Assembly (NCBI GenBank): GCA_032622095.1
Contig: CP136061.1
Span: forward strand, 90,433,745 to 90,497,744
Reading direction: 5' to 3'
From: Siphonodentalium dalli
Taxonomy: Eukaryota > Mollusca > Scaphopoda > Gadilida > Siphonodentaliidae
DNA: 64,000 bases
The position numbers and the translations under genes were made by a program. The notes beneath the pieces are model-generated. The model was not told the origin of the DNA, made no database searches, and saw only the letters and a program-made list of their open reading frames with translations. How positions within the stretch are numbered: the stretch's first letter is position 1; every line of letters starts with the position of its first letter. Below, in pieces: positions 7,331 through 58,983 of the stretch.

Positions 7331-7820
7331 ATATTGGATATGTTATATACGATGGTCTCCTCTTTCCAAATTTAGCTTGTTAAGATTTTTTTCCGGGTAG
7401 GCCCCATATTTCAAACCCGACAGAATACCCCAACAACATATAATTGATTTACCATACCTACATGTACCGTTACTTTCTAAAAATTACGGCAATTATACAA
7501 CCGTCATATATATGAGCATTAGTCCTTTCGCAGATCACGATCATTGTTCTGTAAAATGACGAACAAAGTGCTGTATATATACATATGCAGACAGTTAGTT
7601 GTATTTTTCCGGACCGATCAGCTGACAGACAGTACGAGTGGCGTGTGATAAACACAGAACGACACGTGTGTTAATGGGTTTAATTGTCGGTACGACATTT
7701 GTGCCATCGCGGAGGAAAGAATTCGAGGCTGTGTCTCTCGTTCTATCCTTCTGTGATGGCACTTATGCAGTACCAACAAACCCATCAACACACGCACGAG
7801 TGTCGCTATGTGTATATGTA
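7331..7820. other. Intergenic stretch without recognised gene
   Basis: No feature recognised apart from a short inverted pair around 7670-7800: GTGTTAATGGGTTTAATTGTCGGTAC-like sequence is loosely mirrored by the GTACCAACAAACCCATCAACACACG stretch, probably an old hairpin. Confidence 0.4.
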
Positions 7821-8032
7821 CAGTAATGCCCAAAGTAATTGACCACTTAACCACAGCAGAATTATGGGTAATTTTTCAGGATTTAGTCGGAAATATGGCT
7901 TGTTGCCATTCATCGGAAAGCTCTCGGCAAGAGCTTTCCGATGAATGGCAACAAGCTATATTTCCGACTAAATCCTGAAAAATTACCCATAATTCTGCTG
8001 TGTTAAGTGGCCAATTACTTTGGGCATTACTG
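7821..8032. mobile_element. Snap-back hairpin MITE P1, copy 1
   Basis: Type example of the family. Two arms of about 105 bp are near-perfect inverted copies meeting at GAAAGCTCTCGGCAAGAGCTTTC. The ends are CAGTAATGCCC and GGGCATTACTG, flanked by TA on both sides, a Tc1/mariner-like target site. Arm landmarks in order are TAACCACAGCAGAATTATGG, TCAGGATTTAGTCGGAAATA and TGGCTTGTTGCCATTCATCG. No coding capacity; a transcript through it would fold into a ~100-bp stem. Confidence 0.9.
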
Positions 8033-8495
8033 TATACTTCCCCATGCAGCAAGCAGCTAGATAAATCAGACTGACCTGACCATAATACATCGATACCTAA
8101 GCAGCTGTTGTGTTGGAATGCATATACCTCTAGATTTCCAATTTTCCAGTTATATGGGGTTATCGTCACCCGGTTGTTTTATATGGTGAAGAATTACTAC
8201 CATAATTATAAAGAATGCTCTTTTCATCTTAGCTCACTGTGACATAAAGCCTGTGTTAATTAAGTCAAGTGCCACATACTTCATCACGAAACATATCATA
8301 AACGCCCCAGGTTGACCTCCCTAATATTTGGCAATAGGTACATAGATGAAGGTAAATATAGACCCAAGAGTCTACCAAGACTAGATCTGGAGTGTTTAAC
8401 CCATATGAATCCATTTGTTGCATTGGCATGTGGATAAAGGTTTATGAATATAGAACTAGCCAGTGTGTGACAAACTATATATTGAGCTCTATACA
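8033..8495. other. Intergenic stretch without recognised gene
   Basis: No coding frame, RNA gene or repeat recognised. Confidence 0.45.
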
Positions 8496-8980: not shown

Positions 8981-9164
8981 TTAAAGTGATATGAAACACT
9001 CCAATATAGGGGTTCTGTTGAGGTGCTCACATCGAAGAATTATGATCCATGTTGTTATTTCGGAATATTTTACTGCATATTGATTAGAAGATGTCAATAG
9101 CGAATAATCTAACTGAAAGTAGTCATTTTCATAACGGTTATGTCAAAATACATATTGTTGTCCC
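8981..9164. mobile_element. Left end of a family E-like TTAA MITE
   Basis: TTAAAGTGATATGAAACACT starts eleven bases after family A copy 4 and matches the start of the family E MITEs at 45080, 49570 and 59580. Similarity fades after about 150 bp, where the outer part of the giant palindrome begins. Confidence 0.5.
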
Positions 9165-9349
9165 ACAATTGATGATAACCCGCCTGTTTGGCCCCCAGAT
9201 CAGGAACGATAACTCTATCCGACCTATATGCAGTACATGGAGGGTGACCTATATTCTCCGCCCACGCGTCGGTCTATTTGTATGCCGGTTGTGCATGTCC
9301 GGACATGACCCGTTGGTTATATCCAATGGGATAATGTTAAAGTGACACT

Positions 9350-9605
9350 CGCAATGAAAACTTCAAAAAATTCAAAACTTCAAAAATTTCAAAAACTTCA
9401 AAAAGTTCAAAAACTTCAAAAAGTTCAAAAAGTTCAAAAAGTTCAAAAACTTCAAAAAGTTCAAAAAGTTCAAAAAGTTCAAAAATTTCAAAAACTTACA
9501 AAATTTCAAAAAGTTCGAAAAACTTCAAAAAAATTCAAAAACTTCAAAAACTTCACAAATTTCACAAATTTCACAAATTTCACAAATTTCAAAAAACTTT
9601 AAAAA
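9350..9605. repeat. 10-bp TTCAAAAA satellite, left arm
   Basis: About 25 units of (C/G)TTCAAAAA with one or two extra A, turning to TTCACAAAT units near the inner end. It sits directly inside the TTAAAGTGACACTCGC motif. The mirror copy at 15340-15585 uses the same unit but differs in unit order and contains an extra AAATTTTTTAATTTT interruption. Confidence 0.9.
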
Positions 9606-9615
9606 TTAAACAAAA

Positions 9616-9853
9616 TTCAGGATTTAGTCATAAATGTGACCCGCTATATCAAATCCAGTCGGAAGTCGGGATTTTTTTTATCCTGTGCCAATGCATTCTC
9701 TTATATATGCGAGTCGACCAGCCACCGCCGCCGGCGGCGGCGGCGGCGGCAACTACATAATCCTATGGCATGCAAAGAAATTGGCGGCGGCGCTGCCGCC
9801 GGCGGTTCAGGATTTAGTCAAAAATATGGCTTGTTTCCATTCATCGGAAAGCT
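9616..9853. mobile_element. Nested MITE fragments in left arm: P1 half-hairpin split by MITE G/P2 half plus GCC block
   Basis: TTCAGGATTTAGTCA appears at 9616-9630 and again at 9806-9820, where it continues as the P1 arm to GAAAGCT at 9853. Between these 15-bp direct repeats lie the terminal sequence of MITE G (ATGTGACCCGC from 9634), a half of hairpin P2 (9681-9720) and a GC-rich block of GCC/GGC runs. So each arm holds only one half of each hairpin; the partner half is in the other arm. The direct repeat reads as a target duplication made when the G-derived piece entered P1. Confidence 0.7.
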
Positions 9854-9942
9854 ATGGGGGTACGGTGGTGAGCGCCACTGAAAAAAGCAAGTGAGCGAGG
9901 GAAAAAAGAGAAAAATAACATGACAAGTAGTACATAGTACAA

Positions 9943-9948
9943 TTTATT
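9943..9948 (-). terminator. Poly(A) signal, left cassette
   Basis: AATAAA on the minus strand, seven bases after the stop codon of the left 285-aa ORF. The mirror signal is at 15000-15005. Confidence 0.6.
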
Positions 9949-9955
9949 ATATTAA

Positions 9956-10813
9956 CTATTCACAGTCACTTTCGTCCGAATTGTCATCACTTTCGTCAGA
10001 TGTGTCATTTGTTTCGTCCATGAACTTTTCTAGCAATGGTCTGTACTTTAATATTGACATTTTCACTGCATCACGATCTTCAAAACCATTCTTCATATAT
10101 TTCTCCACTTTATCCATGACACTGTTGTGCAGCGTACCATTGCGCAGCCACATATTCTTTATTATTGTCCAAGCATAAACATTCATAAATAGCCTCATGC
10201 CTTCAGTTTTAAGATCTGTACTTTTAAGGTCCTTGTCAGCTTGTACTTTTGCCTCTTTTTCTGTCGAGCCATTTTCCATATACGTTTCCACGTTATCACT
10301 CCATGCTTCTTGTGCTTTATCTCTACTCTCATCACACAAACTTTTGAAGTATTCATCTTCATTCGATTTAATTTTCTTATTCTGACTATCATCCGTGTCC
10401 TCAGTTAATTTTCGTTTTAACTTATTTTCTTGACACCAGTTTTTTACGTGTCTCTGGACATCATGCTGATCTTCGAACAAAAGCCCACAGTCATTGCAAG
10501 GGTACGACATGTCTTCTCGAATGCCTATGTTTTTATGGTTTTCTTTATTAATTTCATTGATCTCACCAGGTGTCCTTATGTCCTTAGTATAGCCATTATG
10601 TTGACCCTGGGGCACACTATAATTATATGTCATGCACTCCCGTTGACCAGGGAGATCTCTGTCATCATATTTCATCTCATTCCGTTGATCCGGGCTATTG
10701 TTGTCATCATATTTCACCACATTCTGTTCATCTGGGTGCTCGCTGTCCTTATGGAGATTATATTTCACGCCATTCCATTCACCCATATGTTGGTTCGTGT
10801 CCTCTTTTAGCAC
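9956..10813 (-). CDS. 285-aa C2HC zinc-finger protein, left copy
   Basis: Predicted protein identical to the right-arm copy at 14135-14992, where the annotation is given in full. It is the promoter-distal gene of the left cassette, overlaps the ATPase gene by 35 bp in another frame, and ends just before a poly(A) signal and the MITE debris at the arm tip. Confidence 0.75.
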   Translation of the reverse strand: MLKEDTNQHMGEWNGVKYNLHKDSEHPDEQNVVKYDDNNSPDQRNEMKYDDRDLPGQRECMTYNYSVPQGQHNGYTKDIRTPGEINEINKENHKNIGIREDMSYPCNDCGLLFEDQHDVQRHVKNWCQENKLKRKLTEDTDDSQNKKIKSNEDEYFKSLCDESRDKAQEAWSDNVETYMENGSTEKEAKVQADKDLKSTDLKTEGMRLFMNVYAWTIIKNMWLRNGTLHNSVMDKVEKYMKNGFEDRDAVKMSILKYRPLLEKFMDETNDTSDESDDNSDESDCE

Positions 10814-11681
10814 ATTCTGTCGCAGCCGTAATGTGTCCGGGGTTGCGGCTTTTTAAATCCACCAGTAGGTAACCGTACGGTTCACTCGTCGCTTCCGAAA
10901 ACTCTCGCATCATACGTTGAGGGCATTCAGGATACATCTGTCTTGATAATGTTGAAATTAAACCCTTGTCAATTGGATTATTGAACAATACCAAATATTG
11001 ACAATTTCGTCGTTGCGTCGGATCCTTGTTGTAGTAGAAATTCTGGTTCAAACTTATCAAAGATAAGTTCAAATGGTGACTTCCTTCGGAATGTAAATCA
11101 TTAACTCTCTGGTCTTTTGATGAAGTTTGCATCAAGTCATCGAGTACAACTAGATTTTTATACTGGGGGTTGATAAGAGAATCCAAGTTTGCTGGTATTC
11201 CCCGTATAAAGTTGACCTGAGGGGTGACGGTATACTTTATGTCATCATATAGGGGCTGCCAATATTTATAAAACCATATTATTCTGTCAGGTGCGGGTGA
11301 TATTTTTGAGGCAGACTTTTGTAGCAAGGTTTTCACGAAGTACGTCTTCCCACTAGATGTCGGTCCACTTACACATGCCGTGAATGGATGCTTGAAAATA
11401 AAATCTTCTTGGACATTGGCCATTGAATCATCAAAGCAGGATGTTATGTCGCTTTGTTGCTGTTTCCCCTGCTGGTGTTGTAGTATCTGGTGTTGCTGTA
11501 ATGGCGGTTGTTGTGGCTGATGATGCTGCTGCCTGTTGCTGCTGCTGCTGTTTGTTGCTGCTGCTTGGTGGTGCTGCTGTGGGTGTCGGTTAACAAACTC
11601 AGTGTGCTTAGATTGTACATGTCTTATCAAATCATGGTTCCGCACATACTCACTAGAGCAAATTGAACACTGGTGCTTCAT
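10779..11681 (-). CDS. Zinc-finger plus HerA/FtsK-type packaging ATPase, left copy
   Basis: 300 aa, predicted protein identical to the copy at 13267-14169 (see there for domains). Both Walker motifs and the N-terminal finger are intact in this arm too, so neither copy has decayed. That argues for recent duplication, ongoing gene conversion between the arms, or an error-free copying mechanism. Confidence 0.85.
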   Translation of the reverse strand: MKHQCSICSSEYVRNHDLIRHVQSKHTEFVNRHPQQHHQAAATNSSSSNRQQHHQPQQPPLQQHQILQHQQGKQQQSDITSCFDDSMANVQEDFIFKHPFTACVSGPTSSGKTYFVKTLLQKSASKISPAPDRIIWFYKYWQPLYDDIKYTVTPQVNFIRGIPANLDSLINPQYKNLVVLDDLMQTSSKDQRVNDLHSEGSHHLNLSLISLNQNFYYNKDPTQRRNCQYLVLFNNPIDKGLISTLSRQMYPECPQRMMREFSEATSEPYGYLLVDLKSRNPGHITAATECAKRGHEPTYG

Positions 11682-11720
11682 TTATACTTGACTAAAATAT
11701 CTCGGGGGTATATGGCTTTC

Positions 11721-11727
11721 CTTTATA
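11721..11727 (-). promoter_or_regulatory. TATA box of the left ATPase gene
   Basis: TATAAAG on the minus strand, starting 46 bases upstream of the ATPase ATG. Mirror of 13221-13227. Confidence 0.6.
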
Positions 11728-11761
11728 CAAATGTTCCTTATAACCTCAAATCTGTCCTGTA

Positions 11762-11842
11762 TTAACGGCGGCGGCGTTTGCCGACGGCGTTTTTTTCCAC
11801 CGGCCTTTCAATAGCCTTCGAAAATTTAGGTAAATTACTCAT
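11762..11842 (-). CDS. Micro-ORF, 26 aa, left version
   Basis: The start codon overlaps the stop of the 73-aa ORF (ATGA). In this arm a run of seven A shifts the frame relative to the right arm, so the peptide ends in a basic tail with four consecutive Arg. The right arm (six A) reads on to a different 31-aa product. Whether either is made is unknown; the basic tail resembles a nuclear or DNA-binding tail. No function is assigned. Confidence 0.35.
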   Translation of the reverse strand: MSNLPKFSKAIERPVEKNAVGKRRRR

Positions 11843-12060
11843 TTTAGTTCAGTGAATATGTCGTTTGGAGTTTTCTTTTTAACTTTTCCAATGTTTGTCT
11901 TCTTCGCTCTTCCTCCTTTTATCTCTTTAACTTTTATCTTCTTAGATCCGGGTTTCCTTATAAGTTTTTCAGGTTTCACTTCAGTCTTGGGTAGGTACTT
12001 CGAGTCATCGTAGGGTACATATTTTTTAAGATCAAAGTCATAATAGTGCGGAGTCCCCAT
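11839..12060 (-). CDS. 73-aa lysine-rich protein, left copy
   Basis: Identical predicted protein to 12889-13110; first gene of the left cassette, reading away from the centre of the palindrome. See the right copy for details. Confidence 0.7.
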   Translation of the reverse strand: MGTPHYYDFDLKKYVPYDDSKYLPKTEVKPEKLIRKPGSKKIKVKEIKGGRAKKTNIGKVKKKTPNDIFTELK

Positions 12061-12097
12061 TCCGGCTAAAGTTCAAAGTGTACTCTGAAGTAGTAAT

Positions 12098-12106
12098 TTT
12101 TATATA
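12098..12106 (-). promoter_or_regulatory. TATA box of the left 73-aa gene
   Basis: TATATAAAA on the minus strand, 46 bases upstream of the ATG. Mirror of 12843-12851. Confidence 0.6.
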
Positions 12107-12179
12107 CGCCAAAATACCATCCAAGACGTATACCCTTATAAACTTCGGACCAGTCCTAGTAACGCGCACGTCAACGCCG

Positions 12180-12184
12180 CCGGA

Positions 12185-12239
<55 letters not shown>

Positions 12240-12262
12240 TCTGTTGTTGTAGTTGTTGTTGT
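12180..12262. repeat. GGC/GCC triplet run, left of centre
   Basis: A near-pure GGC run of about 60 bp followed by a GTT-rich tract. It gives spurious poly-Ala/poly-Val frames. The mirror run at 12663-12772 is longer by about three triplets. Similar GCC blocks occur at the outer end of each cassette (9720-9805 and mirror). Confidence 0.85.
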
Positions 12263-12675
12263 TCACATGTTCGAACTTCCTGCATTATATACAAGAACGA
12301 CAGGGACGTGGCGACAGGGGGCTGGGATGTCTGCCCCCACCCTCAACTTTGATAGCAATAAGTTGAAAATGTCATGCCCGACACATTAGTTGGAATTTTA
12401 CACCACATGTAGGTTGAACTTGTTTCATTGTCTGATTTTCCAACATGTTATTAGTGTGAAATTTGTAGTTTTTAGACCAATAATAGTCTGAAATGATGTC
12501 CATCCGTCTGTTGGAAATTTAGATTAGACATTTCAAACTGTTCGAACGTTTGAGGTACCAACTTTCCAACCTAAGGGAGGAGGTGCAAATATGGTATTTG
12601 GTATCGGAGTTTGGTCTGGTTGAAGGAGGGGGTGGTGCAATTGGAAATCACTCATAATTGCAATGACATTTGTAT
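12263..12675. repeat. Central spacer of the palindrome: dispersed repeat H
   Basis: Not part of the inverted arms. It shares diverged but clear sequence order with 16200-16480 and 28735-28945: CGACAGGGGG-like start, ACATTAGTTGGAA, GTGAAATTTGTAGTTTTTAGACC, CTGAAATGA(TG)TCC and GTTGGAAA. All three copies have the same orientation. So the virus-like arms are joined through a host dispersed repeat. Confidence 0.6.
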
Positions 12676-12700
12676 CAACAACAACAACTACAACAACAGA

Positions 12701-12764
<64 letters not shown>

Positions 12765-12772
12765 TCCGGCGG
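12663..12772. repeat. GCC triplet run, right of centre
   Basis: An ACA-rich tract, then an almost pure GCC run of about 20 triplets ending in GCCTCCGGCGGCG. It lies 70 bp upstream of the right-hand TATA box and could influence promoter or nucleosome behaviour. That is inference. Confidence 0.85.
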
Positions 12773-12842
12773 CGTTGACGTGCGCGTTACTAGGACTGGT
12801 CCGAAGTTTATAAGGGTATACGTCTTGGATGGTATTTTGGCG

Positions 12843-12851
12843 TATATAAAA
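12843..12851 (+). promoter_or_regulatory. TATA box of the right 73-aa gene
   Basis: TATATAAAA starting 46 bases before the ATG at 12889. The ATPase gene has TATAAAG at exactly the same distance, and the 285-aa gene has TTTAAAAA 44 bases before its ATG. Confidence 0.65.
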
Positions 12852-12888
12852 ATTACTACTTCAGAGTACACTTTGAACTTTAGCCGGA

Positions 12889-13110
12889 ATGGGGACTCCG
12901 CACTATTATGACTTTGATCTTAAAAAATATGTACCCTACGATGACTCGAAGTACCTACCCAAGACTGAAGTGAAACCTGAAAAACTTATAAGGAAACCCG
13001 GATCTAAGAAGATAAAAGTTAAAGAGATAAAAGGAGGAAGAGCGAAGAAGACAAACATTGGAAAAGTTAAAAAGAAAACTCCAAACGACATATTCACTGA
13101 ACTAAAATGA
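12889..13110 (+). CDS. 73-aa lysine-rich protein, right copy
   Basis: The first gene outward from the palindrome centre. The N-terminal third is Tyr/Asp-rich with a repeated (K)YxPxxxSKY-like pattern. Residues from about 28 onward are strongly basic with many Lys (KLIRKPGSKKIKVKEIKGG, then GRAKK, KVKKK). There are no Cys, membrane segment or signal peptide. Size and charge would suit a DNA-condensing or minor core protein of a virus-like particle, or a nucleic-acid-binding regulator; this is inference from composition and no family was recognised. The start is supported by the TATA box 46 bp upstream. The stop overlaps the start of the next micro-ORF as ATGA. Confidence 0.7.
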   Translation: MGTPHYYDFDLKKYVPYDDSKYLPKTEVKPEKLIRKPGSKKIKVKEIKGGRAKKTNIGKVKKKTPNDIFTELK

Positions 13111-13202
13111 GTAATTTACCTAAATTTTCGAAGGCTATTGAAAGGCCGGTGGAAAAAACGCCGTCGGCAAACGCCGCCGCCGTTAATACAGGACAGATTT
13201 GA
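13107..13202 (+). CDS. Micro-ORF, 31 aa, right version
   Basis: It starts inside the stop of the 73-aa ORF (ATGA overlap) and ends 19 bp before the ATPase TATA box, filling the gap between the two genes. The first 17 residues match the left version. After the A6 run the frame differs, giving an Ala/Asn-rich end instead of the Arg-rich tail. One arm must carry an indel, and the homopolymer is also where an assembly error is most likely. Translation is unproven. Confidence 0.35.
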   Translation: MSNLPKFSKAIERPVEKTPSANAAAVNTGQI

Positions 13203-13220
13203 GGTTATAAGGAACATTTG

Positions 13221-13227
13221 TATAAAG
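13221..13227 (+). promoter_or_regulatory. TATA box of the right ATPase gene
   Basis: TATAAAG 46 bases upstream of the ATPase ATG. Its position between the micro-ORF and the ATPase suggests the ATPase is transcribed from its own promoter, not as part of one long message. Confidence 0.65.
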
Positions 13228-13266
13228 GAAAGCCATATACCCCCGAGATATTTTAGTCAAGTATAA

Positions 13267-14169
13267 ATGAAGCACCAGTGTTCAATTTGCTCTAGTGAGT
13301 ATGTGCGGAACCATGATTTGATAAGACATGTACAATCTAAGCACACTGAGTTTGTTAACCGACACCCACAGCAGCACCACCAAGCAGCAGCAACAAACAG
13401 CAGCAGCAGCAACAGGCAGCAGCATCATCAGCCACAACAACCGCCATTACAGCAACACCAGATACTACAACACCAGCAGGGGAAACAGCAACAAAGCGAC
13501 ATAACATCCTGCTTTGATGATTCAATGGCCAATGTCCAAGAAGATTTTATTTTCAAGCATCCATTCACGGCATGTGTAAGTGGACCGACATCTAGTGGGA
13601 AGACGTACTTCGTGAAAACCTTGCTACAAAAGTCTGCCTCAAAAATATCACCCGCACCTGACAGAATAATATGGTTTTATAAATATTGGCAGCCCCTATA
13701 TGATGACATAAAGTATACCGTCACCCCTCAGGTCAACTTTATACGGGGAATACCAGCAAACTTGGATTCTCTTATCAACCCCCAGTATAAAAATCTAGTT
13801 GTACTCGATGACTTGATGCAAACTTCATCAAAAGACCAGAGAGTTAATGATTTACATTCCGAAGGAAGTCACCATTTGAACTTATCTTTGATAAGTTTGA
13901 ACCAGAATTTCTACTACAACAAGGATCCGACGCAACGACGAAATTGTCAATATTTGGTATTGTTCAATAATCCAATTGACAAGGGTTTAATTTCAACATT
14001 ATCAAGACAGATGTATCCTGAATGCCCTCAACGTATGATGCGAGAGTTTTCGGAAGCGACGAGTGAACCGTACGGTTACCTACTGGTGGATTTAAAAAGC
14101 CGCAACCCCGGACACATTACGGCTGCGACAGAATGTGCTAAAAGAGGACACGAACCAACATATGGGTGA
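13267..14169 (+). CDS. Zinc-finger plus HerA/FtsK-type packaging ATPase, right copy
   Basis: 300 aa. Residues 5-26 form a classic C2H2 finger (C5, C8, H21, H26). Residues 33-77 are a Gln/His-rich linker encoded by CAG/CAC-rich DNA. The ATPase domain begins near HPFTACVSG: Walker A GPTSSGKT at 106-113, IIWFYKYWQPLYDD at 134-147, Walker B LVVLDD at 177-182, a LISLNQN segment at 208-214 (sensor-like), and a C-terminal YLVLFNNPIDKGLISTLSRQ motif at 229-248. In the HerA/FtsK superfamily (A32-like) this type pumps DNA into capsids and is a hallmark of Maverick/Polinton, adintovirus and related elements. Fusion to a DNA-binding finger could tether the motor to DNA. Its own TATA box lies upstream, and its 3' end overlaps the next gene by 35 bp. 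Intact in both arms. An AAA-type helicase is a less likely reading. Confidence 0.85.
   Translation: MKHQCSICSSEYVRNHDLIRHVQSKHTEFVNRHPQQHHQAAATNSSSSNRQQHHQPQQPPLQQHQILQHQQGKQQQSDITSCFDDSMANVQEDFIFKHPFTACVSGPTSSGKTYFVKTLLQKSASKISPAPDRIIWFYKYWQPLYDDIKYTVTPQVNFIRGIPANLDSLINPQYKNLVVLDDLMQTSSKDQRVNDLHSEGSHHLNLSLISLNQNFYYNKDPTQRRNCQYLVLFNNPIDKGLISTLSRQMYPECPQRMMREFSEATSEPYGYLLVDLKSRNPGHITAATECAKRGHEPTYG
14091..14098 (+). promoter_or_regulatory. TATA-like motif of the right 285-aa gene
   Basis: TTTAAAAA inside the 3' end of the ATPase gene, 44 bases before the ATG of the 285-aa ORF. It is weaker than the other two TATA motifs but at the matching distance. The mirror motif is at 10850-10857 on the minus strand. 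Confidence 0.4.
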
Positions 14170-14992
14170 ATGGAATGGCGTGAAATATAATCTCCATAAG
14201 GACAGCGAGCACCCAGATGAACAGAATGTGGTGAAATATGATGACAACAATAGCCCGGATCAACGGAATGAGATGAAATATGATGACAGAGATCTCCCTG
14301 GTCAACGGGAGTGCATGACATATAATTATAGTGTGCCCCAGGGTCAACATAATGGCTATACTAAGGACATAAGGACACCTGGTGAGATCAATGAAATTAA
14401 TAAAGAAAACCATAAAAACATAGGCATTCGAGAAGACATGTCGTACCCTTGCAATGACTGTGGGCTTTTGTTCGAAGATCAGCATGATGTCCAGAGACAC
14501 GTAAAAAACTGGTGTCAAGAAAATAAGTTAAAACGAAAATTAACTGAGGACACGGATGATAGTCAGAATAAGAAAATTAAATCGAATGAAGATGAATACT
14601 TCAAAAGTTTGTGTGATGAGAGTAGAGATAAAGCACAAGAAGCATGGAGTGATAACGTGGAAACGTATATGGAAAATGGCTCGACAGAAAAAGAGGCAAA
14701 AGTACAAGCTGACAAGGACCTTAAAAGTACAGATCTTAAAACTGAAGGCATGAGGCTATTTATGAATGTTTATGCTTGGACAATAATAAAGAATATGTGG
14801 CTGCGCAATGGTACGCTGCACAACAGTGTCATGGATAAAGTGGAGAAATATATGAAGAATGGTTTTGAAGATCGTGATGCAGTGAAAATGTCAATATTAA
14901 AGTACAGACCATTGCTAGAAAAGTTCATGGACGAAACAAATGACACATCTGACGAAAGTGATGACAATTCGGACGAAAGTGACTGTGAATAG
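14135..14992 (+). CDS. 285-aa C2HC zinc-finger protein, right copy
   Basis: Residues 10-80 hold about five diverged 13-14-residue repeats of the pattern P(D/G)QxNxxKYDD. Residues 106-127 are a C2HC finger (C106, C109, H122, C127), followed by basic clusters (KLKRK, KKIK) that could be nuclear localisation signals. The region 150-260 is predicted helical and contains an internal duplication: VETYMENGSTEKEA near 175-188 mirrors VEKYMKNGFEDRDA near 236-249. The C-terminus is a run of Asp/Glu/Ser. Helical proteins of this style with a finger sit beside packaging ATPases in other invertebrate virus-like elements as far as I recall; function unknown. It overlaps the ATPase gene by 35 bp and is followed by a poly(A) signal. 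Confidence 0.75.
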   Translation: MLKEDTNQHMGEWNGVKYNLHKDSEHPDEQNVVKYDDNNSPDQRNEMKYDDRDLPGQRECMTYNYSVPQGQHNGYTKDIRTPGEINEINKENHKNIGIREDMSYPCNDCGLLFEDQHDVQRHVKNWCQENKLKRKLTEDTDDSQNKKIKSNEDEYFKSLCDESRDKAQEAWSDNVETYMENGSTEKEAKVQADKDLKSTDLKTEGMRLFMNVYAWTIIKNMWLRNGTLHNSVMDKVEKYMKNGFEDRDAVKMSILKYRPLLEKFMDETNDTSDESDDNSDESDCE

Positions 14993-14999
14993 TTAATAT

Positions 15000-15005
15000 A
15001 ATAAA
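15000..15005 (+). terminator. Poly(A) signal, right cassette
   Basis: AATAAA beginning eight bases after the stop codon of the 285-aa ORF, followed by a T-rich stretch. It lies before the MITE fragments, so messages would end inside the cassette. Confidence 0.6.
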
Positions 15006-15094
15006 TTGTACTATGTACTACTTGTCATGTTATTTTTCTCTTTTTTCCCTCGCTCACTTGCTTTTTTCAGTGGCGCTCACCACCGTACCCCCAT

Positions 15095-15332
15095 AGCTTT
15101 CCGATGAATGGAAACAAGCCATATTTTTGACTAAATCCTGAACCGCCGGCGGCAGCGCCGCCGCCAATTTCTTTGCATGCCATAGGATTATGTAGCTGCC
15201 GCCGCCGCCGCCGCCGGCGGCGGTGGCTGGTCGACTCGCATATATAAGAGAATGCATTGGCACAGGATAAAAAAAATCCCGACTTCCGACTGGATTTGAT
15301 ATAGCGGGTCACATTTATGACTAAATCCTGAA
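15095..15332. mobile_element. Nested MITE fragments in right arm (mirror of 9616-9853)
   Basis: Reverse complement of the left-arm block: P1 half at 15095-15142, GC-rich block, P2 half at 15228-15267, MITE G end finishing at 15314, and the 15-bp P1 piece at 15318-15332. Confidence 0.7.
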
Positions 15333-15339
15333 TTTTGTT

Positions 15340-15585
15340 TAATTTTTAAAGTTTTTTGAAATTTGTGAAATTTGTGAAATTTGTGAAATTTGTGAAGTTT
15401 TTGAAGTTTTTGAAATTTTTTGAAGTTTTTGAAGTTTTTCCAAAAATTTTTTAATTTTGTAAGTTTTTGAAATTTTTGAACTTTTTGAACTTTTTGAAAT
15501 TTTTGAAGTTTTTGAAATTTTTGAACTTTTTGAACTTTTTGAACTTTTTGAACTTTTTGAACTTTTTGAAGTTTTCGTTGCGAGT
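15340..15585. repeat. 10-bp satellite, right arm
   Basis: Mirror of the left satellite (TTTTTGAA(C/G) units). The unit succession differs from the left, so this is the fastest-evolving part of the arms and rules out a simple copy of the same read. Confidence 0.9.
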
Positions 15586-15710
15586 GTCACTTTAACATTA
15601 TCCCACAGTGTGCGCCATGCGTTACTTTAACATTCATCCATAGTGAGTGTCACTTTAATAATCATCCCCAGTGAGAGCCTAGTGTCCCTTTAAAATTAAA
15701 GACTGAAGCT
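15586..15710. repeat. Terminal sub-repeats with GTGTCACTTTAA
   Basis: Three to four diverged units of about 30-38 bp, each with a GTGTCACTTTAA-like core and a TATCCCA/ATCATCCCC-like tail. The left arm has only one such unit (around 9325-9350). A C-run at 15714-15726 follows. Confidence 0.6.
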
Positions 15711-16199
15711 ACCCCCCCCCCCCCCCGAGATCATCACGTGATATACATGTAGATACTATACCATTCATATGGAAAAGTCTGAATATAACCAGCGGGTCAT
15801 GTCCGGACATGTCCAACCGGTACAAGTAGACCTTCGAAATTTTTTGGACATGCCCAACCGGTATACAAATAGACCGACGCGTGGGCGGAGAATATAGGTC
15901 AAGCTGTCTAGACGGGAGTACTGCAGAGAATAGAGTTATCGTTCCTGAAATGGCCCCAACTGGGGTGGGTATCATCACACAATATTAACACAATACTAAA
16001 CAATTAAAGATAAATTATAACGTAATTTTGCTGGTGTCTTTCGCATGGATTTTCTCGTTCCGAACTGTCATATTACACTCGAGAACCTAAATAAAAAGCA
16101 GATTTCGGAAAAATTGGCAGGAATCCTGAATAAATATTTAATATAAATATTTATTACTATAATTGTCGCTGATCCAAAGAATCAATGTCCCTTAAAGTT

Positions 16200-20519: not shown

Positions 20520-21350
20520 TACTAGCTGGTGGACCCGACTTCGTCCGGGCTGTTTCCCCTCTGCTTTTCGGCGAATTGCTCGATTTGACCTTGAATTGAC
20601 CATTTTGAAGGTCAGGGTCAGGTTGGGGTCACGATTTGACCAGTCCAAAACACTCTTCGGACAAAAGTAACCCTAGGTATCAAATTTCGTCGAAATCCCG
20701 TCAAAATTCGAGATTTGACCTTGAATTGACAATTTTGAAGGTCAAGGTCAGGTCGGGGTCACAATTTGAACCGTCCAAAACACTCCCCGGACAAAAGTAC
20801 ACCTATGTATCAAATTTCGTCGAAATCCGTCCGTTTTACCAGATTTGACCTTGAATTGACCCTTTTGAAGGTCAAGGTCAGGGTAACGATTTGACCCGCC
20901 CAAAAGACTCCCCGGACAAAATTACCTCTAGGTATCAAATTTCGTCGAAATCCGTCCACTTTTACCAGATTTGACCTTTTTGAAGGTCAAGGTAAGGTCG
21001 GGGTCACGATTTGACCCGTCCAAAACACTCTTCGGACAAAAGTAACCCTAGGTATCAAATTTCGTCGAAATCCCGTCAAAATTCGAGATTTGACCTTGAA
21101 TTGACAATTTTGAAGGTCAAGGTCAGGTCGGGGTCACAATTTGAACCGTCCAAAACACTCCCCGGACAAAAGTACACCTATGTATCAAATTTCGTCGAAA
21201 TCCGTCAGTTTTACCAGATTTGACCTTGAATTGACCCTTTTGAAGGTCAAGGTCAGGTCGGGGGTAACGATTTGACCCGTCAAAAACACTCCCTGGACAA
21301 AATTATCCCTAGGTATCAAATTTCGTCAAAATCCGGCTGGCAGTTTTCCC
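20520..21350. repeat. About 125-bp tandem array with 375-bp higher-order period
   Basis: Roughly six units of ATTTGACCTTGAATTGAC..TTTGAAGGTCAAGGTCA, CCGTCCAAAACACTC..CGGACAAAA and GGTATCAAATTTCGTCGAAA. The stretch at 20636 recurs at 21011 almost exactly, so three units form a higher-order block. It is preceded by CTAGCTGGTGGACCCGACTT and followed by CA repeats, a layout common in mollusc retroelement tails. That attribution is inference. Confidence 0.85.
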
Positions 21351-32346: not shown

Positions 32347-32536
32347 TTGTAATGCCCTAAGTAATCGACTTCCTTAATCACAGCAGAATTATGGGTAACT
32401 TTTCAAGATTTAGTCGGAAATATGGCTCAGTGAGAGCTTTCCGATGAATGGCAACAAGCCATATTTCCGACTAAATCCTGAAAAGTTACCCATAATTCTG
32501 CTGTGGTTAAGGAGTCGATTACTTAGGGCATTACTG
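32347..32536. mobile_element. P1 hairpin copy 3
   Basis: Both ends present (first bases degraded to TTGTAATGCCC); about 25 bp missing at the tip of the left arm. It sits exactly between two related tandem arrays. Confidence 0.85.
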
Positions 32537-32930
32537 TATGGGGCCCATCACTGTTTCAATGAATCATGTGTATGTATGGCATATGATAACATACTGTATG
32601 GGGCCCCGTCACTGTTTCAATGGATCATGTGTACTAGTATGTATGGCATATGATAACATATGGGGCCCATCACTGTTTCAATGGATCATGTGCATGTATG
32701 GCATATGATAACATGGGCCCCCCCCCCCCCGTCACTGTTTCAATGGATCATGTGTATGTATGGCATATGGTAACATAAGGGGCCATCACTTTGTGTTGCC
32801 CCTATATCATGTGTATTAAATACACATGATATAGGTGCAACACAAAGTATGGGGCCGGTCACTGTTTCAGTAGATCATGTGCATGTATCGGATTACATAT
32901 GGTAACATAAGGTGCCATCGCTCAGCGTGC
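32537..32930. repeat. About 58-bp tandem array
   Basis: Five to six units of GGGGCCC(A/G)TCACTGTTTC, AATGGATCATGTG and ATGGCATATGATAACATA, related to the 31905-32345 array. It contains a C10 run and a short hairpin around 32800-32850 (CTATATCATGTGTATT / AATACACATGATATAG). Confidence 0.8.
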
Positions 32931-33091
32931 GAAGTGTTTGGTGGCCAGGTAAAGGAGTTCATTTTCTTATCGATTGGACAATTTTGAATAATTCTGAGAA
33001 CTTTTTATCAAACATAAATCATGACTTGTTGGCTCACTAGTCAAGAATGACTCCTTGTCTTTTCTCATTGGAATCTTCACATTTAGAACTA

Positions 33092-33369
33092 CAGTAATGC
33101 CCTAAGTAATCGACTCCTTAACCACAGCAGAATTATGGGTAACTTTTCAGGATTTAGTTGGAAATATGGCTTGTTGCCATTCATCGGAAAGCTCTCGGTG
33201 AGAGCTTTCTGATGAATGGCAACAAGCATATTTCCGACTAAATCCTGAAAAGTTACCCACGAGAGCTTTCCGATGAATCATTGGCAACAAGCCATATTTC
33301 CGACTAAATCCTGAAAAGTTACCCATAATTCTGCTGTGGTTAAGGAGTCGATTACTTAGGGCATTACTG
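33092..33369. mobile_element. P1 hairpin copy 4 with a third, duplicated arm
   Basis: Left arm, then right arm as far as GAAAAGTTACCCA, then a second right-arm copy beginning GAGAGCTTTCCGATGAATCA and running to the end. About 278 bp instead of 212. It looks like an arm duplication during replication slippage on a hairpin. Confidence 0.85.
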
Positions 33370-33423
33370 TAAATGTTTGAACTAAAAGTTTTATTAAATG
33401 GACATATGAATGCCGAGTCTGTA

Positions 33424-35021: not shown

Positions 35022-35381
35022 TTAACCCTTTACCCAACAGAAGGGCCCTGTGCCAATGCATTCTCTTATATATGCGAGTCGACCATAGGTCGCCTCGCAT
35101 ATATAAGAGAATGCATTGGCTTAACACATTAAAAGTGTTAAAAAAAAGATTTTTTTTAGGCCAATGCATTCTCTTATATATGCGAGGCGACCTATGGTCG
35201 ACTCGCATATATAAGAGAATGCATTGGTACAGGGCATAACTGTAACTATCACAATGTGGTCAAGGAGCCGGTTCCAATGATATCCATATTTGTATGGTTC
35301 TATTGAGACAGACCGAAGATATTTTAGGCTGTTGAAGCTTTATTTGGCCGGTTTTGGCCAGTTTGTTGGGTAAAGGGTTAA
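35022..35381. mobile_element. MITE family B, copy 1, with two P2 hairpins
   Basis: TTAA at both ends; ends TTAACCCTTTACCCAACA and complement. After GGGCCCTGTG come two complete P2 hairpins (35053-35117, 35160-35228) with CGAGTCGACCATAGGTCGCC at the fold. The right part has CACAATGTGGTCAAGGAGCC and GGCCGGTTTTGGCC. Type example of family B. Confidence 0.85.
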
Positions 35382-37760: not shown

Positions 37761-37931
37761 CGAGAATGTTTGTTCTTATCTTCAATTACAAAATTTGGTT
37801 AAGTTTGTGTTATGAGAAATACACTGTATTACTGTCGCATTCTTGGGAGGTATGGTAGAAACCAATGCAACAAGGCAAAAACAGCGAGTTAAGCTAAAAT
37901 TTCAGCCATTATTCATTCTTATAGACCTATA

Positions 37932-38144
37932 CAGTAATGCCGTAATTAATCGACTTCTTAACCACAGCAGAATTATGGGTAACTTTTCAGGATTTAGTCG
38001 GAAATATGGCTTGTTGCCATTCATCGGAAAGCTCTCGGCGAGAGCTTTCCAATGAATCGCAACAAGCCATATTTCCGACCATATCCTGAAAAGTTACCCA
38101 TAATTCTGCTGTGGTTAAGACGTCGATTAATTAGGGCATTACTG
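37932..38144. mobile_element. P1 hairpin copy 6
   Basis: Full length with TA on both sides; tip GAAAGCTCTCGGCGAGAGCTTTC is a perfect fold. Confidence 0.9.
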
Positions 38145-38569
38145 TAGATAGATTTGAAATTTAGAACAATGCATCTTCAACATGTCCACACGATTCAACG
38201 AATGCTACAAAGGTTGTTTCGCAAATCATCGGATCCCTTTATCGAATCGAGTTGTCAGCCTGATTTGCGAATCAATTTGAATTTTGAAGCTTCGCAGGGC
38301 TCAATGTTTTATATGTACTACCGTTACACTGATTTCATCTTTTCATTTCTGGCTCTATCTCACAACTACTCAATATTTCCAACATTCTTTTCACCCACTG
38401 ATAACATGATATATTTGACTGATTTCTGTAAACTCTAAGCAGTTTAGATGCATTCCTGGTGCATTACCAATTTCATGAGCCACTCCAGAATAACGTTTTC
38501 TGTTTGAGGTGTTTCCAATTTTCAGGTTATAACACTTAACTGAACTGAATCGGCTGTAAAATACTTTCT

Positions 38570-38960: not shown

Positions 38961-39716
38961 TAGGTAAGTACTGTACTGCCCTAAAGCCACATGGTCTAAA
39001 ATAATTAGGGTAGCCAAGGTAGGGAATTTTTTTTATTTTTTTATTTTGAATTCCATTAGATCATTGACAATTTAACCTAGAAAGCTTCACAATTCAGATA
39101 AAATTGAATAGTTCAAAACGAAATATTGTTATCTTGAATTAGTCAGAGCACTAGACTAATAAAACTTCTAAACGTTTTTGTAGGAGAGGTTTGAAAATGG
39201 GTTAGATACCTTTCGATATCCTTCCCACTGAACAAAAACAAAAATTATCAGTGCCTAAAGTCCAATAAAAAGTTTTGGGTAGGCACCTTTTTCTAGGGTA
39301 GGTAGGGAAACCCTAAACACAGGTAATTTTTTTTTTGGCCTTAGTAAATGACTCATCAAATTGGGGTGGCACCCCCCCCCCAGTTAAACCACATTTCAGT
39401 TAGACTTTAAACACGGTCTAATTTAAACCACAAGATAACCAGAGGATTGTGTGGTTAAAACGCATGCAATCATCAACTGGTATGAAACAGTAACTTCCAG
39501 TACAATTGTGGCTCCAGCAAATTAATATATGTCATATAAAAATGAAATGGTTAGCAGTTCAATAGCTACAGTGTATCCGCAGTCAAGGGATATAATCAGG
39601 GTTCATTTACCACATTTAATCGCGGTGTGACGGCAGTCACAGGACTGTTAATAGTGGTGCGCTTATGGTTTTGACCACAGTTAGAAACCCATAATAACCA
39701 GTTACTGGTTCAATTA

Positions 39717-39929
39717 CAGTAATGCTCTAATTAATCGACCTCTTAACCACAGCAGAATTATGGGTAACTTTTCAGGATTTAGTCGGAAATATGGCTTGTT
39801 GCCATTCATCGGAAAGCTCTCAGCGAGAGCTTTGCTATGAATGGCAACAAGCCATATTTCCGACTAAATCCTGAAAAGTTACCCATAATTCTTCTTTGGT
39901 TAAGAGGTCGATTACTTAGGGCATTACTG
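39717..39929. mobile_element. P1 hairpin copy 8
   Basis: Full length; a TGCTATGAATGG change in the right arm makes a small mismatch near the tip. Confidence 0.9.
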
Positions 39930-40059
39930 TACTTAGGACAGTACAGTAAAGTAAAAAAAAAAATCTGTTTATTCTGTGGCTCAAGTGTACCACGCATAAC
40001 ATGATCAATGAACTGAAATAAATGGTGGAAAAATAAATTTCTATTTCAATATAATACTC

Positions 40060-42440: not shown

Positions 42441-42726
42441 TACCCATGAAAGTTTGGCAGATACGTAAGGTAACCGTGCAGCATGAATCAAGTTTTTGTG
42501 TTACTTTTTCACCAAAGGGTAAACATTAAGAACTGCGAATAGACGAGCAATGTTATCGAATCTTAATATTATCCTAAAATACTGGCGTGATGTGAGCAAT
42601 CCTATCCTAAAAACACTCCATAGAAGCACCATCTTCACTGAACCCTGTAATTAGTTGGCGAAACACACAGGATTGATTGCACCCTGTCAGGCCGAGTGCA
42701 TGGATGTTTGTTTCTGGTTTACCCTA

Positions 42727-42928
42727 CAGTAATGCTCTAAGTAATCAACTTCTTAACCACAGCAGAATTATGGGTAACTTTTCAGGATTTAGTCGGAAAT
42801 ACCGCTTGTAACCATTCATCGGAGAGAGCTTTCCGATGAATGGCAACAAGACATATTTTCGACTAAATCATGAAAAGTTACCTATAATTCTGCTGTGGTT
42901 ATGGAGTCGATTACTTAGAGCATTACTG
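42727..42928. mobile_element. P1 hairpin copy 9
   Basis: Near full length but more diverged in the left arm (AAATACCGCTTGTAACC). Confidence 0.85.
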
Positions 42929-42984
42929 TACCTGTATGGATGAAAAACAATTTCCTACAATATTGGGCACTAATTGGGGGCATG

Positions 42985-44330: not shown

Positions 44331-44820
44331 AAGATCCTGAGAAGTTAGCTCTCGCGATATCTCTCTTTAATCACAGAGGAGATGTGAGTCAGATCGTAAT
44401 AATATAGAGAGCCAATTATGATTAGTTCTTATATCGGTGCAATCTGCTTCTAACACTATAGGTTAAAGTTCTGCCAGTTTTTTTTCTGCTTGAATTTTTG
44501 TGTTCTGTTCGAATCTTTGATGGTCAAACGAACTGAAAGTGCGACTTGGTTAACACTTGTCTGTGTTCAAATTTTCGCTTTTGACGAAGCATTTCCATGC
44601 CGGGGAAATAGGTGCACTCTCCAGTACAGCTCTCTGATGTTTTTTTTGACTCTGTGTCTTTGTTTGAGGGCAGGTATATCATATTCAATGGTGTTGTTTG
44701 GTGTCTTGACGACTTCCCATGCACTTAAGATGTGACCCCAAGAGTGACTGATGGGGTAAGAACTGATTGGGTGAGGCGTTAAGATGTTTCTGACTATCCA
44801 GCATTTTCCAAGATATGATA

Positions 44821-45033
44821 CAGTAATGCCCTAAATAATCGACTCCTTAACCACAGCAGAATTGTGGGTAACTTTTCAGGATTTAGTTGGAAATATGGCT
44901 TGTTGCCATTCATAGGAAAGCTCTCGATGAGAGCTTTCTGATGAATGGCAACAAGCCATATTTCCGACTAAATCCTGAAAAGTTACCCATAATTCTGCTG
45001 TGGTTAAGGAGTTGATTATTTAGGGCATTACGG
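44821..45033. mobile_element. P1 hairpin copy 11
   Basis: Full length; last base changed (ATTACGG). Confidence 0.9.
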
Positions 45034-45079
45034 TACAAGGGTCTGGGAACATTTAAATATATAAATATATATTACCAGA

Positions 45080-48435: not shown

Positions 48436-48439
48436 GGTA

Positions 48440-48652
48440 CAGTAATGCCCTAAGTAATCGACTCCTTAACCAAAGGAGAATTATGGGTAACTTTTCAGGA
48501 TTTAGTCGGAAATATGGATTGTTGCCATTCATTGGAAAGCTCTCGGGGAGAGCTTTCCGATGAATGGCAACAAGCCACATTTCCGACTAAATCCTGAAAA
48601 GTTACCCATAATTGTCCTTTGGTTAAGGAGTCAATTACTTAGGGCATTACTG
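48440..48652. mobile_element. P1 hairpin copy 14
   Basis: Full length. Both arms share the unusual AAAGGAGAATT/AATTGTCCTTT change, so the arms changed together (CCACAGCAG to CCAAAGGAG). Confidence 0.9.
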
Positions 48653-49313
48653 TATGTGAAAGAGAAGTCACTTCTCCCTGGGACAAAATTAGGGAGATCT
48701 GCCACATTTTATGGAGAAAATGTCTCCCAAGTCCCTGTTCTGACAAACAGTAATTTTCCATTCCTTGGTGCTTACTGCCCCCTTCCCCTCATAGACTGGT
48801 TCTCTGATATACTATAATTGGTGCTTACTGCCTCCATGATGGCCAGCCCCCCCCCCCCAGACTGTTCTCTGATATACAGTAATTGGTCCGGTCGTCTGGG
48901 TTCACCTCTCTATTGATTTTTCTCAATAGTTTATGCAAATATGTTATTATTTTATACCGGAGTTGGTATATTTGGTATATGCATCGTATCTATTTGACCT
49001 TCAAATCAATAAAATGCGACGATATTGTCGCGGTTTGAGTTCCGGTACGACTCATTATGTATGGTTATTATTGATTTGGTCTCAAACTAGCCAAGTCACA
49101 AAAACATTTCCTAGAACATTCCATGTACATAAATCACAACTGTTTGGAAACAGGAATGCTTACAAAGGATATTAGGTTTGGGTGGGGGTGGATTTTCCTG
49201 GTTTCTGCCATGGAATATCCATGGTTTGATTTCACACCATATTAAGAACTCACATTGGAATGTTTTCTCTGCAAGACAATAATTAGATCATGCTGATGAG
49301 CCCATTTATATTA

Positions 49314-51455: not shown

Positions 51456-51834
51456 GATGTTCTGACCCATTCTGATAGTGAACTTTATAACGTTGAACAA
51501 ACAATGTAGGGAATATATATTTATGTTAATACTTGTTCCTCAGTAAACTACTTCACATCAAGGGTTGTCCCAGCTTGGGATTGCATGCTTTTATGATACT
51601 TTTGTGAGCCGACATTGCAATAAACATTGAAGCAATTACCCCGGAGAAAATTCCATGATAGTATTAAAGTGACGCAAAGCAAAATCGCTCACAGTCACTT
51701 AAATCATACAATTGGGAGTTGGTACATTTGATAAAAACTAAGTAATATATTACCTGCACTGTTTTTCAATGTTATACAGATCCTTGTCGCAACATCAAAA
51801 GGTTCCAGGTTTTTTGCTGGTGGAGTATGCAAGC

Positions 51835-52079
51835 CTTGAAATAGGGTGTCTGTCATTTGCAGAATGAGGTTCCCAGAGGGTGAATTTAGTGATGCTACCC
51901 CGCATAGCGGGCTAGCATCACCAAATTCACCCTCTGGGAACCTCATTCTGCTCAGGTGTAAGCAGAATGAGGTCCCCAGAGGGTGAATTTGGTGATGCTA
52001 GCCCGCTATGCGGGGTAGCATCACTAAATTCACCCTCTGGGGACCTCTGCAAATGACAGGCACACTATTTCAAGGCTTG
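51835..52079. mobile_element. P3 MITE, copy 5, compact
   Basis: Two hairpins (51860-51950, 51962-52048) almost touching, with the normal middle region deleted; ends AAGCCTTGAAATAGGGTGTC and complement. TA-rich flanks. Confidence 0.85.
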
Positions 52080-52480
52080 CTGATATGTGTGATTTTTGAT
52101 ATTATTGGGTGATATGTGTGATTTTCTGTCTATAATAATTTCACTTGCGGCTATGAATAGTTTTTCTGTTGATATAATTTGGTGATATGCACACTTTTCC
52201 CTCGATTGACTAATAAATCCATTAAGGACCTTGGTGCACCTAGAATTCTATCTTATATAATACCAACCCTAATGCATTTATAAGGGTTAGATTTGATTTT
52301 TTCAGGCCCCCATGTCTGATATTCTGGCACCATGTTGATCATGCTAGATATTACATGTTTCAAGAGGGTTCCTGCTGAGTACACTTTCCATCTACAGAAG
52401 GAGTTGAGTTCTAAAAACAGCTGTAAATGAACCCCTTATCAAATTAAAGACAATTTTGATGAACACCTGACAATGTTATC
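52080..52480. other. Intronic stretch without recognised feature
   Basis: A GATATGTGTGATTTT word is duplicated near 52083 and 52111; otherwise nothing recognised. Confidence 0.4.
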
Positions 52481-55218: not shown

Positions 55219-55232
55219 CTCAGCCATTGAGA

Positions 55233-58300: not shown

Positions 58301-58317
58301 CAATCACTTACTCATAG

Positions 58318-58620: not shown

Positions 58621-58661
58621 AATGGAATACCCCTAGAAAGTAGAGCTGGAACTCTAAAACT

Positions 58662-58903: not shown

Positions 58904-58983
58904 GCTCTGAGATCTACGGTCTATCTACATTTGGAACTCAAGACATAGAAAATCATTTATTAGTATTAAATCACTTCCACATA

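What the first reader, a model, noticed from the sequence alone, without database searches (positions are those of the whole stretch)
9165..15975. Giant palindrome carrying two mirror-image copies of a minimal virus-like gene cassette
Arms of about 3.1 kb are reverse complements with essentially no differences across coding sequence, and the duplicated genes are intact in both arms. Reading directions diverge from the centre. Maverick/Polinton and adintovirus elements normally have single-copy genes between modest terminal repeats, so a head-to-head double cassette with nothing else between is unusual. It could be an inverted dimer formed at a hairpin end during protein-primed or rolling-hairpin replication, or an element whose whole genome has become its terminal repeat.
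Basis: partly seen in the sequence, partly recalled or inferred. Interest (0 to 1): 0.88.

Follow-up and report, generated by a model that had tools for sequence, protein, structure and literature searches.

The report
Mirror-image virus-like mobile DNA element
A 6.8-kilobase piece of apparently mobile DNA in an unidentified, probably eukaryotic genome carries the same three-gene virus-like cassette twice, as mirror images, and short repeats at its edges suggest that it was inserted as one unit, perhaps with help from a larger Maverick-type virus-like element.

Summary
The palindrome is in the window. Near-identical arms lie at 9327-12263 and 12677-15605, with a 413-bp spacer between. The inner arm has 1 mismatch in 2729 aligned columns, and the three ORFs are identical in both arms. 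Each arm carries a 73-aa basic protein, an A32-type (packaging) ATPase (Pox_A32 E=1.1e-6, above cut-off) and an overlapping 276-aa protein; both larger proteins have weak, below-cut-off finger matches.

New here: the element runs 9170-15977, with exact 6-bp duplications (CACAAT) directly outside and (TGA)2//(TCA)2 termini. Vertebrate Mavericks have 6-bp duplications and comparable end motifs (PMC8097293, passages). The outermost ends are not mirror-perfect: 130 of 149 aligned columns identical, 231 gap columns. No polymerase, integrase, protease or capsid gene was found.

Best reading: a recently integrated, helper-dependent, Maverick-like element with a palindromic (snap-back or inverted-dimer) genome. 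It fails the gene-content test for Maverick membership. Rivals are in-place duplication with gene conversion, another transposon class, and misassembly. The host genome could not be searched, no homologues were obtained and no reads were available, so copy number, relatives and assembly validity stay open.

The parts
9164..9169 (.). left target-site duplication CACAAT
   Evidence: Exact match to 15978-15983, directly outside the inverted-repeat edges that BLAST had set at 9170 and 15977; a random pair of window 6-mers matches with P=0.0004. The parse is unique: the neighbouring bases do not match (sequence). It was noticed by eye, then checked.
15978..15983 (.). right target-site duplication CACAAT
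   Evidence: As above.
9170..9326 (+). left outer terminal inverted repeat, diverged; starts TGATGATAACC
   Evidence: Score 134 against a maximum of 28 in 300 shuffles; 130 of 149 aligned columns identical, 231 gap columns.
15606..15977 (-). right outer terminal inverted repeat, diverged, 215 bp longer than the left because of extra segments; reads inward TGATGATACCC
   Evidence: Contains further TTAAAGTGACACTC-like units (read by eye).
9327..12263 (-). left near-identical arm (genes on - strand)
12677..15605 (+). right near-identical arm (genes on + strand)
12264..12676 (.). 413-bp spacer at the centre
   Evidence: one weak match elsewhere in the window (75% over 68 columns).
12889..13110 (+). 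ORF3, right arm: 73-aa basic protein, pI 9.9
   Evidence: no Pfam hit at E<=0.01; one weak PHROG hit, E 0.079.
11839..12060 (-). ORF3, left arm, identical
13267..14169 (+). ORF1, right arm: 300-aa protein, finger-like N-terminus (weak), Q/H-rich stretch, A32-type (packaging) ATPase domain
   Evidence: Pox_A32 E=1.1e-6, 28.8 bits over cut-off 22.8; Adeno_IVa2 E=0.0041 and finger families E 0.0086-0.092, all below cut-off.
10779..11681 (-). ORF1, left arm, identical
14162..14992 (+). ORF2, right arm: 276-aa acidic protein, one C2H2-like finger (weak), overlaps ORF1 by 8 nt
   Evidence: DUF7128 E=9.7e-5 and zf-C2H2 E=0.012, both below cut-off; pI 4.8.
9956..10786 (-). ORF2, left arm, identical
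12843..12851 (+). TATA-like motif upstream of ORF3, right arm
   Evidence: Pattern starts at 12843 and 12845; four other + strand starts and two - strand starts in the arm, so suggestive only.
15000..15005 (+). AATAAA beginning 8 nt after the last base of the ORF2 stop, right arm
   Evidence: two other + strand and one - strand AATAAA in the arm, so suggestive only.
9357..9605 (.). AAAACTTCA tandem array, left arm; the step in arm identity lies inside it
   Evidence: mismatches stop at 9533 apart from one at 9752.
15341..15575 (.). the same tandem array, right arm
12181..12239 (.). (CGG)n near the centre, left arm; partner (CGC)n at 12701-12768 is 9 bp longer
9631..9721 (.). piece of a dispersed repeat family of this window, inside the arm
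   Evidence: 45 HSPs outside the element, best 94.4% over 90 columns (recounted in 73).
9805..9862 (.). piece of the dispersed 217-bp palindromic repeat family, inside the arm
   Evidence: 27 HSPs outside the element (recounted in 73).

Best explanation
It is a mobile element of 6808 bp that integrated as one unit. SHOWN: two mirror-image copies of a three-ORF cassette, a 413-bp spacer, inverted-repeat edges beginning TGATGAT, and an exact 6-bp duplication directly outside them. INFERRED: it is a helper-dependent relative or by-product of a Maverick/adintovirus-type element. Such elements are thought to copy linear DNA from the ends with a protein primer, which uses short terminal repeats for jumping back, and to integrate with a retrovirus-like integrase that makes 6-bp duplications. 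During copying, the displaced single strand of a shorter ancestor folded back near the (CGG)n/(GTT)n tract and primed on itself, or two copies recombined. The product had an origin-bearing end on both sides, so it could be replicated and integrated in trans by a full-length helper. Afterwards one outer end was exchanged with a diverged relative, most likely inside the AAAACTTCA array, where arm identity drops from 99.96% to 95%. The cassette (ATPase, finger-like protein, small basic protein) may bias packaging of the helper's particles toward its own DNA; this last step is a guess.
For: Exact CACAAT duplication at repeat edges that BLAST had set beforehand (chance 0.0004 per pair of positions), and no inverted similarity in the 200 bp beyond it (score 19; 300 shuffles mean 19.6, maximum 31), so the mirror structure ends at the insertion boundaries. 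Period-3 terminus TGATGAT on both ends (about 1.4% of window 7-mers have that property), comparable to (AGT)2//(ACT)2 of vertebrate Mavericks, which PMC8097293 links to jumping-back in protein-primed replication (passages). A32-type ATPase domain above the Pfam cut-off; packaging ATPase is a regular Polinton gene (PMC4028283, passages). The ORFs are open and identical; if the tip divergence (19 of 149 columns; 20 of 183 with the adjoining stretch; so at least about 5.5% per lineage) had built up after insertion without selection, 0 of 2000 simulations at 5.5% kept all three ORFs open, so insertion looks recent and the tip difference older than insertion.
Against: No PolB, integrase, protease or capsid gene was found in the element, and no helper in the window. 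The termini are not the (AGT)2 or (AG)3 types that the passages of PMC8097293 give as common in vertebrates. A simple snap-back product should be identical out to its tips; the diverged tips need an extra recombination step. The arms hold pieces of repeats dispersed in the window, which fits a long life inside the host genome better than a recent viral by-product. A single copy was seen; no homologues could be obtained. The decay simulation ignores selection, and at 0.5% divergence 433 of 2000 runs, at 0.2% 1067 of 2000, kept all ORFs open.
Confidence: 0.5

Rival explanations
1. In-place origin: an endogenous virus-like cassette inside an older transposon was duplicated in inverted orientation in the host chromosome, and the inner arms have been kept alike by gene conversion while the outer parts drifted. 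The palindrome then has no role in replication.
For: Arm identity falls in steps from 99.96% (inner) through 95.0% (array side) to 130 of 149 columns with 231 gap columns at the tips, as expected where conversion tracts end. Both ends of the near-identical block lie at or near low-complexity tracts, the AAAACTTCA array and (CGG)n. The arms contain pieces of dispersed repeats.
Against: The ORFs stay open, which neutral decay at 5.5% per lineage would not allow (0 of 2000), unless they are under selection. The 6-bp duplication is still exact.
Confidence: 0.22
2. Misassembly: one real cassette was written twice, in opposite orientation, because the assembler crossed low-complexity tracts at both ends of the block.
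For: The block is bounded by tandem arrays on both sides. No reads, coverage or second assembly could be examined.
Against: The arms differ by one substitution outside the arrays (9752 against 15196), a T-run indel, a 9-bp (CGG)n difference and further differences in the AAAACTTCA array, so the block was not simply copied. Diverged inverted tips and a matching 6-bp duplication exist outside the block.
Confidence: 0.15
3. A non-autonomous DNA transposon of another class that also makes 6-bp duplications, such as Dada or IS3EU (recalled, not checked here), which picked up a virus-like cassette.
For: The element encodes no recognised enzyme for moving itself, so the 6-bp duplication alone does not name the enzyme; TG...CA ends occur in several integrase-like families (PMC2836005, passages).
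Against: A tandem trinucleotide terminus together with an A32-type ATPase suits a Maverick-type origin better. Ginger elements have 4-bp duplications (5 bp in TDD-4/5) and TGTNR ends, which this element does not have.
Confidence: 0.1
4. A stable lineage whose normal genome is this palindrome: a minimal virus-like satellite in which nearly the whole genome is terminal repeat and each arm repairs the other. This is a special case of the best explanation, so its odds overlap with it.
For: Unit-sized boundaries with a 6-bp duplication and two intact cassettes.
Against: Only one copy seen, and the tips do not match each other, which regular arm-to-arm repair should prevent.
Confidence: 0.12

Closest known systems
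Maverick/Polinton elements (polintoviruses)
   Same: 6-bp target-site duplication, terminal inverted repeats, tandem short repeat at the very ends, ATPase of the packaging type; comparison from passages of PMC8097293 and PMC4028283.
   Different: No PolB, integrase, protease or capsid gene found; 6.8 kb instead of 12.7-24.6 kb; repeats of about 3.1 kb instead of 46-1447 bp (intact vertebrate elements, PMC8097293); end motif (TGA)2.
Adintoviruses and the clam adomavirus of PMC11071296
   Same: That preprint reports zinc-finger genes ('Ziftr') in some adintoviruses and in a Tegillarca adomavirus, which also has a packaging ATPase homologue (passages).
Palindromic defective genomes of protein-primed linear replicons (adenovirus symmetric recombinants and inverted-repeat vectors; hairpin derivatives of yeast pGKL1): recalled, not seen in the listings
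   Same: Two origin-bearing ends, mirror-image arms, helper dependence (recalled).
   Different: Those arose in culture or as plasmids; none is known to me as a chromosomal copy with a target-site duplication.
Foldback transposable elements (recalled)
   Same: Very long inverted repeats containing tandem arrays, short middle.
   Different: The arms here hold intact virus-like genes. Foldback elements were not compared by sequence.

Membership tests
Maverick/Polinton | 6-bp target-site duplication | tested here: met
   CACAAT at 9164-9169 and 15978-15983.
Maverick/Polinton | terminal inverted repeats | tested here: met
   Edges 9170 and 15977, score 134 against a maximum of 28 in 300 shuffles.
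Maverick/Polinton | end motif (AGT)2//(ACT)2 or (AG)3//(CT)3 (common vertebrate types; the passages also mention an AC-type) | tested here: not met
   Ends are (TGA)2//(TCA)2: same kind of repeat, different letters. Invertebrate motifs were not looked up.
Maverick/Polinton | packaging ATPase gene | tested here: met
   Pox_A32 above cut-off; a tree against Polinton ATPases could not be made, so kinship with the Polinton branch is untested.
Maverick/Polinton | protein-primed PolB, integrase, protease, major and minor capsid genes | tested here: not met
   Pfam shows none of these in ORF1-3. Outside the element only three ORFs reach 130 aa: two repeats and one of 156 aa without a Pfam hit. Of 66 ORFs of 80 aa or more not inside the element, 9 were scanned with Pfam. 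Split or spliced remnants were not searched.
Adintovirus | PolB plus integrase plus adinto-type virion genes | tested here: not met
   As above, with the same limits.
Parvovirus-type rolling-hairpin replicon | Rep/NS1 gene and terminal hairpins | tested here: inconclusive
   No Rep/NS1 hit in the ORFs; ORF1 has only a below-cut-off P-loop match to PF00910 RNA_helicase, E 0.063. The tips were not folded.
Protein-primed linear replicon (mode of working) | short tandem repeat at the very end allowing jumping-back | tested here: met
   TGATGAT on both ends; the replication itself is untested.

The most novel reading that the evidence does not exclude
A lineage of virus-like satellites whose normal genome is a palindrome: almost the whole genome is terminal repeat, both arms carry the same packaging cassette, and the element spreads by using the polymerase, integrase and capsids of a Maverick-type helper.
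Probability: 0.15. Interest if true: 0.85.

Novelty: new variant of a known kind. Interest (0 to 1): 0.55.

Why it matters
If real, it would be a mirror-image, genome-integrated relative of Maverick-type virus-like elements. It would show that snap-back or inverted-dimer genomes of protein-primed replicons can enter chromosomes as units, and would suggest that such elements have small dependants. It also offers a concrete test: look for a full-length helper that shares its TGATGAT ends.

Tried and rejected
Relatives in IMG/VR: ORF1, 3 stretches matched a pattern, 0 confirmed; ORF1 core, 5 matched, 0 confirmed; ORF2, none matched. In GTDB genome contigs: ORF1, 15 matched, 0 confirmed. In phage records: ORF1, no match. 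ORF3 was not sought in these collections. A degenerate Walker-A pattern gave 0 hits in the stricter form and 69 loci in the looser one; tblastn of the three ORFs against all 69 gave only two hits at E 0.073 and 0.085, which I treat as no relative. A 29-base block of the terminal repeat gave 0 hits in IMG/VR. These collections hold viral contigs and prokaryotes, and may leave out records of the window's own genome, so the misses say little about animals.

PDB by sequence gave only finger matches at E 0.15 and 0.89 for ORF1. PHROGs gave nothing for ORF1 and ORF2 and one weak hit for ORF3 (E 0.079). NCBIfam gave only hits far below their curated cut-offs. AlphaFold without alignment gave poor models (ORF1 mean pLDDT 32.7; ORF2 45.6), so no fold search was run.

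Rejected: a pure copy-paste assembly error (the arms differ in several places) and a Maverick membership claim (gene content not met). Papers: ten searches, with passages read in PMC11071296, PMC8097293, PMC2836005, PMC4028283, PMC6431247 and PMC11071308 (the last two gave little of use). Among the titles and abstract starts listed and those passages I saw no mirror-image Maverick-type element; most listed papers were not opened.

Full report
OBSERVATION. Self-comparison of the window shows one dominant inverted repeat: 9374-12263 against 12677-15575, 98.97% over 2902 columns. A gapped alignment extends it to 9327-12263 and 12677-15605 with 10 mismatches and 48 gap columns; 8 of the 10 mismatches and 38 of the 48 gap columns lie in an AAAACTTCA tandem array at the outer end of each arm. 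Inside that (9534-12263 against 12677-15414) there is 1 mismatch and 10 gap columns (one T-run base and 9 bp of (CGG)n), with 2729 aligned columns; the three ORFs are letter-identical between arms. A 413-bp spacer lies at the centre.

BOUNDARIES. The inverted similarity goes on outward in a diverged form, and BLAST ends it at 9170 and 15977. In the 200 bp beyond, the score is 19 against a shuffled mean of 19.6 and maximum of 31; the outer zone itself scores 134 against a maximum of 28 (300 shuffles each). Directly outside those edges lie identical hexamers, CACAAT, at 9164-9169 and 15978-15983; two random window hexamers agree with probability 0.0004. The neighbouring bases differ, so the parse is unique. 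Both ends start TGATGATA. This is what insertion of the whole 6808-bp palindrome as one unit, with a 6-bp target duplication, would leave.

CASSETTE. Reading outward from the centre, each arm has: ORF3, 73 aa, pI 9.9; ORF1, 300 aa, with a weak finger-like N-terminus and an A32-type ATPase domain (Pox_A32 E=1.1e-6, 28.8 bits against cut-off 22.8; Adeno_IVa2 E=0.0041 and finger families below cut-off); and ORF2, 276 aa, overlapping ORF1 by 8 nt, with a weak finger match. pI values are. A TATA-like motif lies upstream of ORF3 (12843) and an AATAAA begins 8 nt after the ORF2 stop, but both motifs recur in the arm. The large ORFs exceed chance: 0 of 1000 Markov simulations reached 276 codons. Outside the element only three ORFs reach 130 aa: two are repeats, and the third (156 aa) has no Pfam hit. 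Of 66 ORFs of 80 aa or more not inside the element, 9 were scanned with Pfam and 0 of 9 had a hit at E<=0.01. So no polymerase, integrase, protease or capsid gene was found; split remnants were not searched.

ARM IDENTITY STEPS. Inner 99.96%, array side 95.0% with 38 gap columns, tips 130 of 149 aligned columns with 231 gap columns (with the adjoining stretch 163 of 183; BLAST pieces 76% and 87%). If the tip divergence had accumulated after insertion without selection, open ORFs would not be expected: all three stayed open in 0 of 2000 simulations at 5.5% per lineage, 6 at 2%, 90 at 1%, 433 at 0.5% and 1067 at 0.2%. Hence either the tips differed before insertion, or the cassette is under selection with gene conversion between the arms. 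The inner arms also carry pieces of two repeat families that are dispersed in this window: 45 HSPs for 9631-9721, 27 for 9805-9862 and 1 for the spacer, 73 in all (recounted; sequences). The lineage has therefore either lived in this host genome or shed repeats into it.

HOW IT MOST LIKELY WORKS. Intact vertebrate Mavericks have terminal inverted repeats, 6-bp duplications and end motifs such as (AGT)2 that permit jumping-back in protein-primed replication; they are 12.7-24.6 kb with repeats of 46-1447 bp (PMC8097293, passages). Packaging ATPase is a regular Polinton gene (PMC4028283, passages). This element has the 6-bp duplication, the same kind of terminus and an A32-type ATPase, but nothing recognised that would copy or insert it. 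The simplest account is a helper-dependent element whose genome became an inverted dimer by snap-back priming or recombination between inverted copies, keeping an origin-bearing tip on both sides, with later exchange of one tip at the AAAACTTCA array. Steps shown: structure, duplication, ORFs, identity steps. Steps inferred: helper, replication mode, snap-back origin, tip exchange, and any packaging function. Precedents among adenovirus defective genomes and yeast linear plasmids are recalled only; the listings did not show them.

MEMBERSHIP. It is not filed as a Maverick/Polinton or adintovirus, because the gene-content features were tested (within the limits above) and not met, and the common vertebrate end motifs do not match. 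That it works like a protein-primed, integrase-inserted element remains the best reading (0.5). Zinc-finger genes and packaging ATPases are reported for some adintoviruses and a clam adomavirus (PMC11071296, passages), a possible link that could not be tested by sequence.

LIMITS. The host is unidentified; that it is a eukaryote, probably an animal, is inferred from the gene-poor, repeat-rich sequence and was not tested. Copy number, helper, host and assembly validity are open.

Noticed in passing
2348-2526, 7819-8034, 32349-32540, 33090-33371, 35045-35235, 37930-38146, 39715-39943, 42725-42930, 44819-45035, 48438-48654, 51829-52080, 55232-55447, 58982-59198: At least 13 short self-complementary (foldback) repeats of about 180-280 bp in one 64-kb window, at least six of them of one 217-bp family (listing cut short); pieces of dispersed repeats of this kind lie inside the giant palindrome's arms.
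   Followed up: partly
15606-15779: The right outer end has extra TTAAAGTGACACTC-like units and a G-run that the left end lacks (read by eye; alignment).
   Followed up: partly
20566-21335, 25-399, 58304-58702: Tandem or direct repeats elsewhere in the window.
   Followed up: no
9732-9749, 12185-12238, 12702-12764, 15198-15215: The four runs of four or more exact GGC, GCC, CGG or CCG units that a pattern found in the window lie inside this element.
   Followed up: no
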